Shown: piece by piece, positions 11,996-46,894 of the stretch | How positions within the stretch are numbered: position 1 is the stretch's first letter | How the letters are laid out: every line of letters begins with the position of its first letter | DNA from: Thermoflexales bacterium | GTDB taxonomy: Bacteria; Chloroflexota; Anaerolineae; J036; Brachytrichaceae | DNA: 48,259 nt | Reading direction: 5' to 3' | NCBI GenBank assembly: GCA_019694215.1 | Contig: JAIBCK010000014.1 | Coordinates: forward strand, 1-48,259 | Program-made: the position numbers and the translations under genes | The notes under the pieces: generated by a model | The model's input: only the letters and a program-made list of their open reading frames with translations | Told to the model about the DNA's origin: nothing | Databases searched by the model: none

Positions 11996-12958
11996 ATGAC
12001 CTCACGCTTCGCCACCGCGCGTGCCTGCTCGAACATTGCCCTGATCAAATACTGGGGCAACCGCGACAACGCCCTGCGCCTGCCGGCCAATCCGTCGATC
12101 TCTTTCAACCTGGCCACGCTCTACACCGAGACCACGGTCAGCATCGAAGGCGGCGAGCGTGACGGCGTCGAGCTCGATGGCGCCCCCGCCACGGGCGATG
12201 CGGCGCGCCGCGTGACGGAACATCTCGACCTGCTGTGGGGGGCGAACAGGCCGCACGCCAGGGTGCGCTCGCACAACAACTTTCCGATGGGAGCAGGCAT
12301 CGCATCGAGCGCCGCCGCCTTCGCCGCCCTCACGGTCGCCGCCTGCGCGGCGATGGGACACCAACATGCGGAGGCCGCGCTCTCCGCGCTGGCCCGTCGT
12401 GGCAGCGGCAGCGCCAGCCGCAGCGTGCCCGGGGGCTACGTCGCCTGGCGCGACGAGTCGGCCTATTCGATCGCGTCCGCCGAGCACTGGCCGCTCGTCG
12501 ACGTCATCGGCGTGGTCTCCGCCGGCCACAAGAAGGTCGGCTCGACCGAGGGCCACGCGCTCGCCCCGACCTCTCCGCTGCAGGCTGCCCGCGTCGCCGA
12601 CGCCGCCCGCCGTTTCGAGGCCTGCCAGCGCGCCGTCGCGCAGCGCGATTTCGCCCACCTGGCCGATCTGATCGAGGAGGACGCCCTCATGATGCACGGG
12701 GTGATGATGACGTCAACGCCGTCACTGATGTACTTCCTGCCCGGCACGATGGCCATCCTGCATGAGATCCGTGCGTTGCGCGAACGGGGTGTCGAAGTCG
12801 CTTTCACGATCGATGCCGGCCCGAACGTGCATTGCATCTGCGCGCCCGCGGCGGTGCCGGCGGTCGAAGCCGCGCTGCGTGGCCTCGATGGCGTGCGCGA
12901 CGTGCTGACCTCGGGCATCGGCGGCCCCGCTCAGGTCATCGCGCAAGCGGCAGGCTGA
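11996..12958 (+). CDS. mvaD: Mevalonate-pathway decarboxylase (diphospho- or phosphomevalonate)
   Basis: 320 residues, GHMP-kinase superfamily. It converts mevalonate diphosphate (or, in some Chloroflexota, mevalonate phosphate) to an isopentenyl product with ATP and CO2 release. The family signature IALIKYWGNRDNALRLPANP is at the N-terminus; the phosphate-binding loop GAGIASSAAAFAA, GSGSASRSVPGGYV and TIDAGPNVH follow. The start at 11996 is leaderless-like. No other mevalonate gene is nearby. Roseiflexus is known to use a phosphomevalonate decarboxylase with isopentenyl phosphate kinase, so the exact substrate is open. Its 3' end overlaps the convergent kinase gene by 23 nt. Confidence 0.9.
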   Translation: MTSRFATARACSNIALIKYWGNRDNALRLPANPSISFNLATLYTETTVSIEGGERDGVELDGAPATGDAARRVTEHLDLLWGANRPHARVRSHNNFPMGAGIASSAAAFAALTVAACAAMGHQHAEAALSALARRGSGSASRSVPGGYVAWRDESAYSIASAEHWPLVDVIGVVSAGHKKVGSTEGHALAPTSPLQAARVADAARRFEACQRAVAQRDFAHLADLIEEDALMMHGVMMTSTPSLMYFLPGTMAILHEIRALRERGVEVAFTIDAGPNVHCICAPAAVPAVEAALRGLDGVRDVLTSGIGGPAQVIAQAAG

Positions 12959-14057
12959 TTGTCATCGTTGTGCCCTGGCCGGGCGCGCTGCTCGCGCTGA
13001 TCCGCCCGCCATGCGCATCGACCAGCCCCTTGGCAATGGCCAGCCCCAGGCCGCTGCCACGCGACGTGTCGTCCTTGTAGAAGCGGTCAAAGATGCGCGC
13101 CAGGCGGTCGGGCGCAATCCCCGGGCCGGTGTCCATCACCGTGAGCTGCGCCTCGCCGTCGCCGCCCCGCGACGCGTGCAGCGTGATCGAGCCACCCTGC
13201 GGGGTGTAGCGCAGTGCGTTGGCGACGAGGTTGTCCAGCACCTGCCGGATCCGCACGCCATCCACGTCCAACGGTTGAATGTCAACTTGAGCCGAGGCGC
13301 TCAGCGTGATGCCCGCCTGTGCGGCCTGCCCGGCAAAGGCGGCCACGCAATCGGAGAGCAGCTCGCCCGCCTCGACGCTCTGACGCTCCAACTGCAGGGC
13401 GCCGGCCTCGCTCAGCGACAGGGTGCGCAGGTCCTCGATCAGGCGCGCCATCACCCGGGTCTGCTCCAGCGCGGTCTCGAGGTGCGCGTCATCGCGGGCA
13501 TACACACCGTCCAGCTGGCCTTCGAGCTGGCCCTGCAGGATGGTCAGCGGCGTGCGCAGCTCGTGCGTGACGTCGGCCAGAAGCTGCCGACGCTGCTCGG
13601 CGTTGCTCTCCAGCCGCTCAGCCATGGCATTGAAGGCGCGCGCCAGCCGGCGCGACTCGCGGGCGCCGCCCTCGGTGGCGCGGGCGCGATAGTCGCCGCG
13701 CTCGAGCCGCGCCGCCGCCCTTGCGATGTCGCCCATCGGGCGCACCCAACGGCGCGCCTCAACGACCAGCCGGAAGACGCCGAACACCACCAACACGGCC
13801 ACTCCCGCCACAACGAACCGGCTGATCGGCGCGATGATGATCGACCGGCCCATCGCCATCTCGCCGTGTTCGCCGCTCAGCGAGAAGATCGTCAGCCACA
13901 GCGCTGACACGCAGCCGACCGTGACCAGCAACAGCAGCACCACAAAGCCGATGGCTCTTCGGATCATCGTGCGTTGTGCGGCTCGCCCCCACTGCCGCGG
14001 CGGGAAGGGCTCGTTGTCCGGCCACCAGGGCGGGCGCTCGCGGGGTTGCTCAGTCAT
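12936..14057 (-). CDS. Two-component sensor histidine kinase
   Basis: 373 residues. Two transmembrane helices (about residues 30-55 and 75-100) enclose a very short external loop, then a HAMP region, the HisKA motif DVTHELRTPLTI, the N box VLDNLVANALRYTP, G1 MDTGPGIAP and G2 GSGLGLAIAKGLV. All catalytic boxes are intact. I start at ATG 14057, whose ATGACTGA overlaps the regulator stop by 8 nt; an upstream in-frame ATG at 14078 is less likely. The loop is too short for a sizeable ligand-binding domain, so the signal may be sensed in the membrane or through the small membrane protein encoded upstream at 14831. Confidence 0.94.
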   Translation of the reverse strand: MTEQPRERPPWWPDNEPFPPRQWGRAAQRTMIRRAIGFVVLLLLVTVGCVSALWLTIFSLSGEHGEMAMGRSIIIAPISRFVVAGVAVLVVFGVFRLVVEARRWVRPMGDIARAAARLERGDYRARATEGGARESRRLARAFNAMAERLESNAEQRRQLLADVTHELRTPLTILQGQLEGQLDGVYARDDAHLETALEQTRVMARLIEDLRTLSLSEAGALQLERQSVEAGELLSDCVAAFAGQAAQAGITLSASAQVDIQPLDVDGVRIRQVLDNLVANALRYTPQGGSITLHASRGGDGEAQLTVMDTGPGIAPDRLARIFDRFYKDDTSRGSGLGLAIAKGLVDAHGGRISASSAPGQGTTMTISLPLAR

Positions 14058-14742
14058 CGGCAAAACGATAGCCGACACCGTAGACGGTGTGGATGTAGCG
14101 CGGGTGATGGGGATCGGGCTCTAGCTTGCGGCGCAGGTTCTTGACGTGCGCGTCGATGGCCCGCTCATACGACTCGAAGGCCACGCCCTGCACGGCATCC
14201 AGCAATTGCGCGCGGGTGAAGACCCGCCCGGGCTGGCGCGCCAGCGTGGCGAGCAGCTTGAACTCGGTGGCCGTCAGCTCGATCGGTGTGCCATCCCGGC
14301 GCACCCGCAGCCGCGCCACGTCCAGTGTCAGGTCTGCCGCCGTGATGACATCACCCGTCTCCGCGACAGCCTCGCTGCGGCGCAGCACGGCGCGTGCGCG
14401 GGCCACCAGCTCGCGCGGGCTGAAGGGCTTGGTGATGTAGTCGTCGGCGCCCAGCTCCAGCCCGATCAGCCGGTCGCTCTCGTCGCCGCGCGCGGTGAGC
14501 ATGATGATCGGGAGGCGTGACTGGCGGCGCAGCTCGCGCGCGACATCCAGGCCATCCAGACCGGGCAACCCGAGGTCGAGGACGATCAAATCGGGGGCCA
14601 GGGTCTGCGCCAGGCCCAACGCACTGCGGCCATCACCGGCCACGCTCACCTCGAAGCCGGCCCGGCTGAGGTAGTCGCGCGCGATGGCGGCGATCTGCGG
14701 TTCGTCGTCGACGACGAGGATGCGTTTGGCGCGCTCGCTCAC
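14050..14742 (-). CDS. OmpR/PhoB-family response regulator
   Basis: 230 residues. Receiver domain with the acidic pair in VVDDEP, phospho-acceptor Asp in VLDLGLPGLDG and Lys in ITKPFSPREL; winged-helix DNA-binding domain with TEFKLLATLARQPGRVFTRAQLL and a YGVGYRF end. A longer reading frame exists upstream, but GTG 14742 starts the receiver directly and TATCAT lies 7 nt before it, so the gene looks leaderless. It overlaps the kinase gene and lies 88 nt after the small membrane protein gene, so it may be transcribed both with that gene and alone. Confidence 0.95.
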   Translation of the reverse strand: MSERAKRILVVDDEPQIAAIARDYLSRAGFEVSVAGDGRSALGLAQTLAPDLIVLDLGLPGLDGLDVARELRRQSRLPIIMLTARGDESDRLIGLELGADDYITKPFSPRELVARARAVLRRSEAVAETGDVITAADLTLDVARLRVRRDGTPIELTATEFKLLATLARQPGRVFTRAQLLDAVQGVAFESYERAIDAHVKNLRRKLEPDPHHPRYIHTVYGVGYRFADD

Positions 14743-14749
14743 GGGGCGG

Positions 14750-14755
14750 ATGATA
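14750..14755 (-). promoter_or_regulatory. Putative leaderless -10 of the response regulator gene
   Basis: TATCAT (5 of 6 matches to TATAAT) on the minus strand, 7 nt before GTG 14742, in a gap with no ribosome-binding site. It decides the start codon. Confidence 0.55.
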
Positions 14756-14830
14756 AGGCGGATGAATACGGGCGGCGGAGGGTGCATCCCCATCCGCCGC
14801 CCGCAGGTTGTTTGATCGCGCTTGCGCCGG

Positions 14831-15316
14831 CTATGCCGCAGGCGCGTCGCCACCAGTCGGCGGGGCCGCGGGCGCATGCTGCTTGCGATGCCACTCCTCG
14901 ACCCAGGGCGGCACGCCGTGGCCCTTGTCGCCCATCGGCCCGCAACCCCGCATCGGCCCATACCCGCCCATCATGTGGCGGCCAAAGGCCATGCGGGCCA
15001 CGATGCGAATGACAATCGCCAGCACGAACAACCCGATCAGCAGGCCGACCAGGCCGCCGAAGGGGTGGAACCCGCCCATCATCGGGCCAAGGCGCCCAAC
15101 CGGCATGGGCATGCCATACCCGCCACGCCCCGGAACCGCGCGCGGATACGCCGGAACGCCGGGGGCCACAGACGGTTGGCCTTCGGCCACGACCACCTGA
15201 CTTTGCGCCGCGATGGCACCCTGCGCGTAGCCCATGCGGAAGGCCATGCCTCCCGCGGCCGCGACGGCGGCCACCAGCAACACGGCGGCCAACACCCCAA
15301 AAAACAGCTTCTTCAT
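14831..15316 (-). CDS. Small Gly/Met/His-rich membrane protein next to a two-component system
   Basis: 161 residues from ATG 15316 (AGGAGA about 10 nt upstream). Residues 1-25 form a signal-anchor helix, the middle is Gly/Pro-rich, and a second hydrophobic helix (GGLVGLLIGLFVLAIVIRIV) is followed by a Met/Gly/His-rich tail ending in WVEEWHRKQH. I do not recognise a named family, but small proteins with this layout are common beside OmpR-type two-component systems in Gram-positive-like bacteria. The Met, Cys and His content suggests, without proving, metal binding. It probably belongs to one operon with the regulator and kinase and may be their accessory sensor. Confidence 0.75.
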   Translation of the reverse strand: MKKLFFGVLAAVLLVAAVAAAGGMAFRMGYAQGAIAAQSQVVVAEGQPSVAPGVPAYPRAVPGRGGYGMPMPVGRLGPMMGGFHPFGGLVGLLIGLFVLAIVIRIVARMAFGRHMMGGYGPMRGCGPMGDKGHGVPPWVEEWHRKQHAPAAPPTGGDAPAA

Positions 15317-43101: not shown

Positions 43102-44682
43102 ATGACCATGTTACATCATCAGGATGTCGGTGTCCCTGGGGCGACCGATCGCTCCGCCGAACAGACCGCACCACAGACCCAACTAACTCTCGCCACGCTG
43201 GAGTCCGATGTTCGCACCCCGATGCAGAACATCCTTGGGCTTTCTGATCTGCTCCTTGATTCGGCGCTGGACAGCAAGCAGCGTGGCTATGCCAACATCA
43301 TCCGCGATTCCACAGAGCAGTTGGTCGCGATCCTCAACGATCTGATCGATGATGCCAAGCTGCGCGACGGCTCCTTCAAGCTGTCGTCGGAGATCTTTGA
43401 TATCACGGCTTTGGTCGAAAGTGTTGCAGGTGCCAGCGCCGATGCATCCAGCGGCGTGAGTGTGCTGGTTGACATTGCCCCCGACGTGCCGGCCCGACTG
43501 CGGGGGGACACCGCTCGGCTGCGTCAGATTCTGAGTGGTCTGGTGGCTGAGCTGGTGAGTCGCCGGCCCGATGAATTGGTCATCGCCGTCGAACAACGGC
43601 CGGGCGATGCCGGCGACGCAAAGCTGATGCTGCGCTTCGTCCTGACGGCATACGGCCAGCTCAAAGCTTCACCGGATGTCAATCAGCTCCCCAACGCGCG
43701 AAACTCGCTGGCGAGCCGGGTGCGTTCCGGCATCATTCAGCGTCTGGGCGGCAGCCTCACCTCGCGAAACCTGCCCGATCCGGGATATGAAGTCGCGTTT
43801 GATGCAATCCTCGAGGCGCCCGGTGTGAGTGTGACCAGCGAGGTGACGGAGCCGGATGGCGAGGCCTCTGTGCTGTCGCACCTGCGCGTGCTGATCGTTG
43901 ACGACAGCAGGCCCACACGGGAAATTTTGGCGCGCTACGTGGCTGCCTGGAAGATGAAATGCCGCGGGGTGAGCAATGCGACGGACGCGATGGCGGTGCT
44001 GCGCGACGCCGCCTCGGCCGGCAGTCCCTTTGACGTAGCCGTGATCGACTACCGCTTGCCTGGCCTGAACGGCTTCGATGTCGCCAGCATGATCAAGAGC
44101 GACCGCCGCTTTGCCTCCATGGCGCTGATCCTGCTAACGGGCAGCGACGACCTGCTGGCGCAGAGCGCCGAAAAGGCCGGCTTCTCGGCCTATCTGACCA
44201 AGCCCGTCCGGCAGTCCACGCTCTTCGACGCGATTTCCACCGTATTCCTGGCCGAACGCATGCCAGAGGTCCTCACCCGCCGGGGGGATTTGCCCGTCCG
44301 CGCGAACCCGCCCACCGTGCTGCTGGTGGAGGACAACCTCGCCAATCAGAAGCTCGCCATGGCACAGTTGGAGAGCATGGGATGCCAGGTCCGCGCGGTC
44401 AACAATGGCCATGACGCCGTGCGTGAGGTCGCTGTCAGCGGTGACCAGTACGCCCTCGTCCTGATGGATTGTCAGATGCCGACCATGGATGGCTATGCGG
44501 CGACCCATCAGATCCGGAACGCCGAGAAACTGACCGGCCAGCACATCCCGATCGTGGCCATGACCGCCAACGCCATGCAGGGCGCGCGCGAGGAGTGCCT
44601 CCTCGCCGGGATGGACGACTATCTGTCCAAACCCGTCAGCCGCGAATTGCTCCGCGACATGGTGCGCAAATGGGCACGCTGA
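43102..44682 (+). CDS. Degenerate histidine kinase with two receiver domains
   Basis: 526 residues, cytosolic (no membrane helix). Residues 28-85 match a HisKA dimerisation domain, but the phospho-acceptor block reads ESDVRTP in place of SHELRTP, so the His is Ser35. The following 170 residues keep the outline of an ATPase domain (RLRQILSGLVAELV ... GIIQRLGGSLTSRN) but lack the N box, the DxGxG box and the GxGLGL box. Two intact receivers follow: VLIVDDSRP, AVIDYRLPGLNG, LLTG, LTKPV (about 258-375) and VLLVEDNLAN, LMDCQMPTMDG, AMTANA, LSKPV (about 403-520). It is probably a phospho-relay or scaffold that takes phosphate from another kinase. GGGGGAGGG precedes ATG 43102. No output domain is seen. 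Confidence 0.85.
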   Translation: MTMLHHQDVGVPGATDRSAEQTAPQTQLTLATLESDVRTPMQNILGLSDLLLDSALDSKQRGYANIIRDSTEQLVAILNDLIDDAKLRDGSFKLSSEIFDITALVESVAGASADASSGVSVLVDIAPDVPARLRGDTARLRQILSGLVAELVSRRPDELVIAVEQRPGDAGDAKLMLRFVLTAYGQLKASPDVNQLPNARNSLASRVRSGIIQRLGGSLTSRNLPDPGYEVAFDAILEAPGVSVTSEVTEPDGEASVLSHLRVLIVDDSRPTREILARYVAAWKMKCRGVSNATDAMAVLRDAASAGSPFDVAVIDYRLPGLNGFDVASMIKSDRRFASMALILLTGSDDLLAQSAEKAGFSAYLTKPVRQSTLFDAISTVFLAERMPEVLTRRGDLPVRANPPTVLLVEDNLANQKLAMAQLESMGCQVRAVNNGHDAVREVAVSGDQYALVLMDCQMPTMDGYAATHQIRNAEKLTGQHIPIVAMTANAMQGAREECLLAGMDDYLSKPVSRELLRDMVRKWAR

Positions 44683-45476: not shown

Positions 45477-45707
45477 ATGTCGCCTTCGACGTCCTGGCCG
45501 CGGCGCGCCCTTGTCGTGCCAATCCGCGTCTATCAGAAGACGCTCTCTCGCGCTTTTCCACCCTCCTGCCGCTTCTATCCCTCCTGCAGTGAATACACCG
45601 CCCAGGCCATTCTCAAGCACGGGCCCTTGCGCGGGATCTACCTCGGTATCAGGCGCATCCTGCGCTGTCATCCCTTTCATCCGGGCGGCTATGACCCGGT
45701 TCCCTGA
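45477..45707 (+). CDS. yidD: Membrane protein insertion efficiency factor YidD
   Basis: 76 residues from ATG 45477 (GGTGAGGG upstream). [20 protein letters not shown], then [15 protein letters not shown] and [14 protein letters not shown] are the complete family signature with three Cys. A small amphipathic membrane-associated protein thought to help YidC. An in-frame ATG at 45411 is possible but would overlap rnpA. Confidence 0.95.
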
Positions 45708-45718
45708 GTCTTGATTCC

Positions 45719-46894
45719 ATGACAAAACTTCGCGGTCTCTGGCTGGCCCTCCCGGCGCTGGCCCTGACGCTGAGCGCATGCGGGGCCTCTGAGCCGGCCC
45801 CCGGCGGCTTTCCCGGCCTTCTGGTCACGGACAGCAATGCCTATCTCGCCAGCAACACGCACGTCTACAAACTGTCGCTCGACACGGCGGCGGAGCAGTG
45901 GCGCTTCTCGCTGGGCAGTCCTGCGACGGTGGTCTTTGCCGGTGCGCCAGTCCGCTTCGACAAGACCATCGTGGTGGCCGGCGGCATCGGGACGGGTTTC
46001 ATCGACAACCATGTCTACGCCATCTCGGATGCGGACGGCAGCGAGGTCTGGCGCTTCAACGGCGGCGAGGCCTCGCGCGAGTATGTTGACGGCGTTGCCA
46101 CCGATGGCAAGCTGATCTACGCCGCGAATGGTGATGGCACGTTGTACGCGCTCGATCCGGCCACGTTGAGCGATGTCAACGATGCTGGCGTGGCCCGCAA
46201 GTCCCCGACCCTGGTCTGGAAGTTCAGCACCGGGAATCGCTTGTGGAGCCGGCCCCTGATCGATGGCGGGCACGTGTATCAGGCCTCGATGGATCACAAG
46301 CTGTATGCGTTGGACGCTGCCACTGGCGCGCTGTTGTGGACGTTCGACCTGGCCGGCACCCCCATCGGGGTGCGGCCCGCCATCGGCAATGGGACGCTCT
46401 ACTTTGGCGCGTTCAACAGCACGTTCTACGCCGTGGAGGCAGCGACGGGCAAGGTCAAGTGGCAGCAGAAGCTGGAGTCGTGGCTGTGGAGCGACCCGCT
46501 GCTGGACAATGGCGTGGTCTATGCCGGCGATGTCCAGGGCCGCGTCTTCGCCCTAAAGGCCGACACCGGCGAGAAGCTGTGGTGGTTCCAGATCCGCGAC
46601 GCCGTGCGCGCCCAGCCTGTGGTGGACAAGGGCACGCTCTTCGTGGCCGGGATGGACACCCAGGTCTATGCGTTGGACCTGGCCAATCTGAAGCCCGGAG
46701 CCGATGGACGGGTCGAATACAAGGACAGCAGCCGCAAGTGGAAGGATGACGTCAATCTCGGGCGTCGCATGCCCTCGACACCGGTGGCGCGCGCGAATCA
46801 GCTGTGGACGCCGCTCTTCGACGGCGACATCAAGCTGCATGTGCTGGATCAGACGACGGGCGCGAAGCTGCTGTCGTTCCAGCCGGCCAAATAG
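45719..46894 (+). CDS. PQQ-type beta-propeller lipoprotein
   Basis: 391 residues. Lipoprotein signal ending LTLSAC (Cys about 20). Six to seven propeller blades follow with the pattern of a PQQ-like/BamB domain, e.g. HVYKLSLDTAAEQWRF, LYALDAATGALLWTFDL, FYAVEAATGKVKWQQKL, VFALKADTGEKLWWFQI. Its place between yidD and yidC is unusual and suggests a role in folding or insertion of exported proteins at the membrane, by analogy with BamB. That is inference; there is no sign of an outer-membrane assembly machine here. No ribosome-binding site is evident; the start is 11 nt after yidD. Confidence 0.9.
   Translation: MTKLRGLWLALPALALTLSACGASEPAPGGFPGLLVTDSNAYLASNTHVYKLSLDTAAEQWRFSLGSPATVVFAGAPVRFDKTIVVAGGIGTGFIDNHVYAISDADGSEVWRFNGGEASREYVDGVATDGKLIYAANGDGTLYALDPATLSDVNDAGVARKSPTLVWKFSTGNRLWSRPLIDGGHVYQASMDHKLYALDAATGALLWTFDLAGTPIGVRPAIGNGTLYFGAFNSTFYAVEAATGKVKWQQKLESWLWSDPLLDNGVVYAGDVQGRVFALKADTGEKLWWFQIRDAVRAQPVVDKGTLFVAGMDTQVYALDLANLKPGADGRVEYKDSSRKWKDDVNLGRRMPSTPVARANQLWTPLFDGDIKLHVLDQTTGAKLLSFQPAK

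What the first reader, a model, noticed from the sequence alone, without database searches (positions are those of the whole stretch)
43102..44682. Pseudo-histidine kinase: His replaced by Ser, ATP boxes lost, both receivers intact
The HisKA block reads ESDVRTP (Ser35 at the phospho-acceptor site). The N, G1 and G2 boxes of the ATPase domain are unrecognisable, although the overall layout RLRQIL...QRLGGSL survives. Both receivers retain the acidic pocket, Asp, Thr and Lys. Coordinated loss of the catalytic parts while the receivers stay intact suggests the protein was retained as a phosphate sink or scaffold and is not a pseudogene.
Basis: partly seen in the sequence, partly recalled or inferred. 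Interest (0 to 1): 0.62.

Follow-up and report, generated by a model that had tools for sequence, protein, structure and literature searches.

The report
Dead kinase with two live receivers
A bacterial signalling protein has lost everything it needs to act as a kinase but keeps two working-looking phosphate-receiving domains and is still maintained by natural selection, which suggests that a different kinase uses it as a receiving partner.

Summary
ORF 43102-44682 (526 aa) has a HisKA/DHp domain with Ser35 at the phospho-acceptor site (Pfam 41.3 bits), no HATPase_c match at E<=1, and two receivers with all catalytic residues. It has no sensor domain: 29 residues precede the DHp.

It is not an error or a recent pseudogene. 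The same-genus orthologue (60% identity, same RidA-X-rpmH site) has Leu at that position and lacks the same ATP boxes. dN/dS is 0.26 (DHp), 0.50 (CA-like), 0.24 and 0.11 (receivers). Two genomes of a sister genus have a sensorless protein with a likewise degenerate CA domain but His kept (SHELRTS), so CA loss need not go with His loss.

No Hpt was found in 6 genomes, and none of 11 other HisKA kinases scanned carries a receiver. The most similar DHp belongs to a receiver-less PAS/GAF kinase (C57) with a G001 orthologue.

Best explanation: a pseudokinase whose receivers are phosphorylated in trans, most likely by the C57-type kinase. Partner and output are inferred. New variant of a known kind (DivL, RcsD, FasC, ETR2/EIN4), not a new class.

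The parts
43102..44682 (+). gene for the sensorless pseudo-hybrid histidine kinase, 526 aa
   Evidence: open frame and ATG; orthologue in G001; dN/dS
43189..43371 (+). HisKA/DHp domain, residues 30-90
   Evidence: Pfam PF00512, 41.3 bits; two long helices in the model
43204..43206 (+). Ser35 codon (TCC) at the phospho-acceptor His site
   Evidence: alignment, codon
43372..43821 (+). degenerate CA (ATPase-like) domain, residues 91-240: N, G1, F and G2 boxes lost, lid region shortened
   Evidence: no HATPase_c match at E<=1; motif table; span 81 against 93; model
43888..44235 (+). receiver 1, phospho-acceptor Asp316 at 44047-44049
   Evidence: PF00072; residues
44317..44667 (+). receiver 2, phospho-acceptor Asp456 at 44467-44469
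   Evidence: PF00072; residues
42417..42878 (-). RidA family neighbour (Ribonuc_L-PSP), same neighbour in G001
   Evidence: Pfam; tblastn in L134
44867..45088 (+). rpmH (L34), downstream neighbour; name from the sequence and recall
   Evidence: translation

Best explanation
The gene encodes a cytosolic, sensorless former hybrid histidine kinase that can no longer bind ATP in the usual way or phosphorylate itself. Its DHp helices are kept as a dimerisation and docking platform for two competent receivers. A separate, receiver-less kinase, most likely the orphan PAS/GAF kinase on contig C57 whose DHp is the most similar in the genome, phosphorylates the receivers in trans, by docking or as a DHp heterodimer. 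The protein then acts as the receiver subunit or modulator of that kinase. Shown: the losses in sequence, the intact receivers, the selection, the orthologue, no Hpt match, and the presence of a C57 orthologue in both genus-g1 genomes. Inferred: catalytic death, trans-phosphorylation, partner identity and output.
For: Ser/Leu in place of His and lost ATP boxes in both species of the genus; purifying selection, DHp 0.255 and receivers 0.243 and 0.114; all receiver residues kept; no Hpt in 6 genomes, control 8 of 14; no receiver in 11 of the 12 other HisKA kinases, the twelfth not validly scanned; C57 DHp best match in the genome, E 2e-13, next 6e-8; C57 orthologue at 51% in G001; in G014 a kinase that groups with C57 (96/82) is followed by a stand-alone receiver that falls in one clade with the pseudokinase REC2s (91/69); precedents for pseudokinase-kinase pairs, FasC and ChrS.
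Against: No genomic linkage between this gene and C57. Only 1 of 3 REC2-like stand-alone receivers is seen beside a kinase, and tree supports are moderate. G000 has a stand-alone-looking receiver in a 182-aa frame that C57 might serve instead. ChrS pseudokinase heterodimers with the truncated form were not seen in the paper's own assay. Catalysis was not tested.
Confidence: 0.5

Rival explanations
1. Phosphate sink: the protein docks on or forms a DHp heterodimer with an active kinase and drains phosphoryl groups into its receivers, damping that kinase's real output.
For: Two intact receivers and no output domain; RetS siphons phosphoryl groups from GacS (PMC12189002); RetS and the RetS-GacS complex are among the closest solved structures.
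Against: No output regulator of the presumed partner was identified, so there is nothing known to be damped. A sink does not explain why the CA-like part stays constrained.
Confidence: 0.2
2. DivL-like scaffold or sensor: the kinase-like part binds a response regulator or kinase and transmits its state; the receivers are regulatory and phosphotransfer through this protein is not its main role.
For: DivL has a non-His residue, binds DivK~P and controls CckA (PMC5361649, PMC4211667); DHp selected; DivL 4q20 is a structural match.
Against: DivL has no receivers and keeps the N, G1, F and G2 boxes (and recall for the receivers); here the receivers are the best conserved parts, 65 and 78% identity with all catalytic residues.
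Confidence: 0.12
3. The protein is a homodimeric receiver pair charged by small phosphodonors such as acetyl phosphate, with no dedicated kinase.
For: The architecture allows it, and no dedicated partner is encoded next to the gene.
Against: The DHp stays close to a kinase DHp, including the region after the His site, which is more than bare dimerisation would seem to need.
Confidence: 0.08
4. A decaying gene on its way to loss, with the receivers the last to go.
For: CA-like part has the highest dN/dS, 0.50, and 44.7% identity between species; found in 2 of 2 genus-g1 genomes, but a clear relative in only 2 of 4 genus-g2 genomes.
Against: Intact frames in two species with synonymous distances near 1; CA-like dN/dS upper bound 0.742; in genus g2 the degenerate CA evolves at 0.070.
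Confidence: 0.05

Closest known systems
ShkA (Caulobacter), sensorless DHp-CA-REC1-REC2 hybrid kinase
   Same: Domain order and absence of a sensor domain; best structural match (6qrj, Foldseek E 8.6e-30; VIA Z 24.8, rmsd 11.0 over 396 residues)
   Different: ShkA is an active kinase with His, has a c-di-GMP-binding pseudo-receiver as REC1 and works through the Hpt ShpA (PMC7010744, passages). Here the kinase is dead by sequence, REC1 has its Asp and no Hpt was found.
DivL pseudo-histidine kinase
   Same: Histidine-kinase fold with a non-His residue at the acceptor site, kept in evolution (PMC4211667, PMC5361649, passages)
   Different: DivL keeps N, G1, F and G2 boxes and has PAS domains; here the boxes and sensors are gone and two receivers are present.
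RetS
   Same: Kinase that acts on another kinase, GacS, by heterodimer formation and phosphate siphoning (PMC12189002, passages); close structural match (6dk7, 7n0e)
   Different: RetS is membrane-bound with a sensor region and keeps its His (recalled).
FasC and evolved ChrS pseudokinases
   Same: CA domain dispensable or lost; act through a second, active kinase (PMC12675982, PMC9491836, passages). The genus-g2 relatives, with His kept and CA degenerate, look most like FasC.
   Different: No receivers; membrane proteins (FasC from the paper's passages, ChrS recalled).
RcsD
   Same: Kinase-like domain without the conserved His (PMC3762810, passages)
   Different: RcsD carries an Hpt domain that does the phosphotransfer; no Hpt here. 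That paper also reports ATP-dependent labelling of RcsD, so a missing His does not prove inactivity.
Plant ethylene receptors ETR2/EIN4
   Same: Divergent kinase domain without the His, receiver kept (PMC7402358, passages)
   Different: Membrane receptors with a sensor; one receiver; reported Ser/Thr kinase activity.

Membership tests
Hybrid histidine kinase | DHp (HisKA) domain | tested here: met
   PF00512 41.3 bits, cut-off 26.9
Hybrid histidine kinase | phospho-acceptor His | tested here: not met
   Ser35; Leu in the orthologue
Hybrid histidine kinase | ATPase domain with N, G1, F and G2 boxes | tested here: not met
   no HATPase_c match at E<=1; motifs absent
Hybrid histidine kinase | receiver with phospho-acceptor Asp | tested here: met
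   two, D316 and D456, with pocket residues
Pseudo-histidine kinase (DivL kind, broad sense) | kinase fold kept without the acceptor His, under selection | tested here: met
   fold prediction, Ser/Leu, dN/dS
Pseudo-histidine kinase (DivL kind, broad sense) | regulates another kinase or binds a response regulator | not testable with these tools
   needs binding assays
DivL itself | N, G1, F and G2 boxes retained | tested here: not met
   motifs absent; feature from PMC4211667
ShkA-type sensorless hybrid kinase | DHp-CA-REC1-REC2 without sensor | tested here: met
ShkA-type sensorless hybrid kinase | active kinase, pseudo-receiver REC1 | tested here: not met
   His and ATP boxes absent; REC1 has D316
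RetS-type siphon | DHp heterodimer with a partner kinase | not testable with these tools
   complex prediction and two-hybrid tests not available
RcsD-type phosphotransfer protein | Hpt domain | tested here: not met
   no Hpt match in the protein at E<=1, none in 6 genomes at E<=0.01

The most novel reading that the evidence does not exclude
A split hybrid kinase made by complementary decay. One gene (C57 type) has sensors, His and ATPase but no receivers; the other (this one) keeps receivers and dimerisation helices but has lost sensors, ATPase and finally His. The two would work together as one hybrid kinase in trans, and the genus-g2 relatives (His kept, CA lost) would record an intermediate step in which the partner could still phosphorylate the His of the receiver subunit.
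Probability: 0.25. Interest if true: 0.65.

Novelty: new variant of a known kind. Interest (0 to 1): 0.45.

Why it matters
About 1% of sequenced histidine kinases lack the acceptor His (PMC5361649, passages), yet few are understood. This lineage gives a natural series: active hybrid kinases at about 40% identity or less, a form with a degenerate CA domain and His, and a form with neither, all with receivers kept. That makes it possible to ask in which order a hybrid kinase loses its functions, and whether receivers can be served wholly in trans without an Hpt.

Tried and rejected
Sequencing or assembly error: rejected, because an independent genome has the same losses with a different residue.

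Single origin of the degenerate state in genera g1 and g2: favoured by three trees (all columns, SH-aLRT 98; DHp+REC1+REC2 with the CA and H-box columns left out, 86/88; REC1+REC2 only, 90/68), not by two (DHp+REC1, one clade in 10% of bootstrap trees; DHp+CA, long branches, not together). The signal lies mostly in REC2, which is missing in G014 and cut short in G019 by contig ends. Two independent CA losses are not excluded.

More degenerate relatives: sought in 396 genomes of the class with a four-row profile. Motifs were checked on 32 rows from 26 fetched loci and 6 regions, some of them the same place: 29 of 32 rows carry His, 3 rows (2 places) do not cover the H-box, and all 32 have GLGL in the G2 box. 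Lower-ranking matches were not read.

Synteny: in 14 regions fetched upstream of yidC from 14 other family genomes, no match to the pseudokinase was found; several regions stop at contig ends. The rpmH query in that script was off by one frame (seen), so its hits there are not used as identification.

Other ideas dropped: the 490-aa C52 protein with two receivers reads as receiver - LuxR-type HTH - receiver (by eye) and is no likely partner. I first thought that G000 has no stand-alone receiver, but one search lists one in a 182-aa frame and a weak match in a 146-aa frame, so that claim was dropped.

Limits: VIA-align rows are dominated by the receivers and barely test the CA part. The AlphaFold alignment holds 40 relatives, so the predicted CA fold leans on them. 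Rfam found nothing in the window; there is no sigma-70-like promoter site and no striking repeat at the gene.

Papers: searches. None of the listings showed by title or abstract a sensorless pseudo-hybrid kinase with two intact receivers; texts were read only as the passages cited.

Full report
WHAT IS THERE. The window is the whole contig C18 of a 3.4 Mb draft genome, 96% complete. ORF 43102-44682 encodes 526 aa. Pfam finds HisKA at residues 30-90 (41.3 bits) and two receivers, and no HATPase_c at E<=1. The H-box has Ser35 where 100 of 102 distinct aligned rows have His. N, G1, F and G2 boxes are gone, and the stretch from GDxxRL to GG is 81 residues instead of 93. Both receivers have the acidic pair, Asp, Thr and Lys. 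Only 29 residues precede the DHp and the frame opens 9 codons further upstream, so there is no sensor. An AlphaFold model (mean pLDDT 83.2, 41 sequences) gives two DHp helices, an alpha/beta CA-like domain in which residues 193-198 fall below pLDDT 50, and two receivers. Its best PDB match is full-length ShkA, followed among kinases by GacS, RetS and, lower, DivL.

IT IS OLD AND KEPT. The only other genome of the genus found (G001, 67% complete) has an orthologue with 60% identity between the same neighbours, RidA and rpmH-rnpA. It has Leu at the His position (CTC against TCC here) and the same missing boxes. dN/dS (Nei-Gojobori, 300 bootstraps): DHp 0.255 (0.097-0.534), CA-like 0.499 (0.280-0.742), REC1 0.243 (0.131-0.396), REC2 0.114 (0.050-0.208); neighbours RidA 0.168, rnpA 0.339, yidC 0.195. 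Synonymous distances are 0.9-1.4, so the ratios are rough. The CA-like part is the least constrained of the four domains, but its upper bound stays under 1.

RELATIVES. In genus g2 of the same family, G019 and G014 encode a protein of the same build, with no sensor, in both cases downstream of a gene that reads as an alpha-glucan phosphorylase (by eye). It has SHELRTS (His kept), a CA domain without N, G1 or G2 boxes, and an intact REC1; REC2 is missing in G014 and cut short in G019 by contig ends. Between these two, DHp dN/dS is 0.011 and CA-like 0.070 (0.034-0.116), so the dead-looking CA domain is strongly constrained there. The other two genus-g2 genomes, G002 and G009, have no match at E<=1e-40. 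Whether g1 and g2 share one loss is favoured but not settled: one clade in three trees (98; 86/88; 90/68), not in two. The canonical relatives in the class have intact motifs, and most have long N-terminal parts.

WHO PHOSPHORYLATES IT. No Hpt was found in G000, G001, G002, G009, G014 or G019 (0 of 6; control 8 of 14). G000 has 12 other PF00512 kinases. Eleven were scanned: all have HATPase_c, none a receiver; the twelfth (C183) was scanned in wrong frames and only seen to have GLGL. Kinases with other DHp families were not counted. The DHp of this protein matches the C57 kinase best (E 2e-13), then C68_1097 (6e-8), then 0.005 or worse. C57 has PAS and GAF domains, HisKA and HATPase_c and ends after the ATPase. 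It has a 51% orthologue in G001, which also has the pseudokinase; C68_1097 has no match in the other 27 family genomes at E<=1e-60. In a DHp+CA tree C57, its G001 orthologue and the G014 C431 kinase group (96/82; bootstrap not settled). The G014 C431 kinase is followed at 141 nt, same strand, by a stand-alone receiver that falls with the pseudokinase REC2s and two other stand-alone receivers in one clade (91/69). Of those three stand-alone receivers only this one is seen beside a kinase: the G009 one has other neighbours and the G019 one lies near a contig end. I read this as a hint that C57-type kinases serve REC2-type receivers in trans.

MECHANISM. Most likely the protein is a receiver-bearing pseudokinase subunit. 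The C57 kinase autophosphorylates and passes phosphate to D456 and/or D316 here, by docking or in a DHp heterodimer. Precedents for parts of this exist: FasC (CA dispensable, heterodimer with FasB; PMC12675982), the ChrS pseudokinase (PMC9491836), DivL (PMC5361649, PMC4211667) and RetS siphoning from GacS (PMC12189002); passages of each were read. A caution: RcsD lacks the His of its kinase domain, yet labelling with ATP is reported (PMC3762810). Whether the result here is a productive output, a sink or a scaffold cannot be decided from sequence.

NOVELTY. Pseudo-histidine kinases are known, about 1% of kinases by one estimate. What differs is the combination: no sensor, His and all ATP boxes gone, two fully competent-looking receivers, no Hpt found in the genome, and relatives that have lost the ATP boxes but not the His. 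Eight paper searches listed nothing that by title or abstract matches this combination; the library is open-access only. I call it a new variant of a known kind.

Noticed in passing
window 12936-14961 (-): An ordinary HAMP-HisKA-HATPase kinase next to an OmpR-type regulator.
   Followed up: partly
window 45719-46894 (+): A PQQ/BamB-like beta-propeller protein lies between rnpA and yidC; it also sits there in 9 of the 14 other family regions fetched, and in G001.
   Followed up: partly
window 45477-45707 (+): A short frame that reads as YidD between rnpA and the PQQ protein (name recalled).
   Followed up: no
L124 (Magnetococcales): Another relative with His kept but N and G2 boxes altered (GHALRTPL, HRLGPAI), far from this clade: possibly a separate case of CA decay.
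   Followed up: no
L136, last bases (G014 contig C192): The contig ends in a transposon-adapter word (CTGTCTCTTATACACATCT), so the last residues of that frame are not genomic.
   Followed up: yes
L253:620-2089 (G000 contig C52): A protein reading as receiver - LuxR-type HTH - receiver, an unusual order with a receiver after the DNA-binding part.
   Followed up: no
L106 (JADDQE010000027.1): Two neighbouring canonical hybrid kinases of this family on one unclassified-bacterium contig.
   Followed up: no
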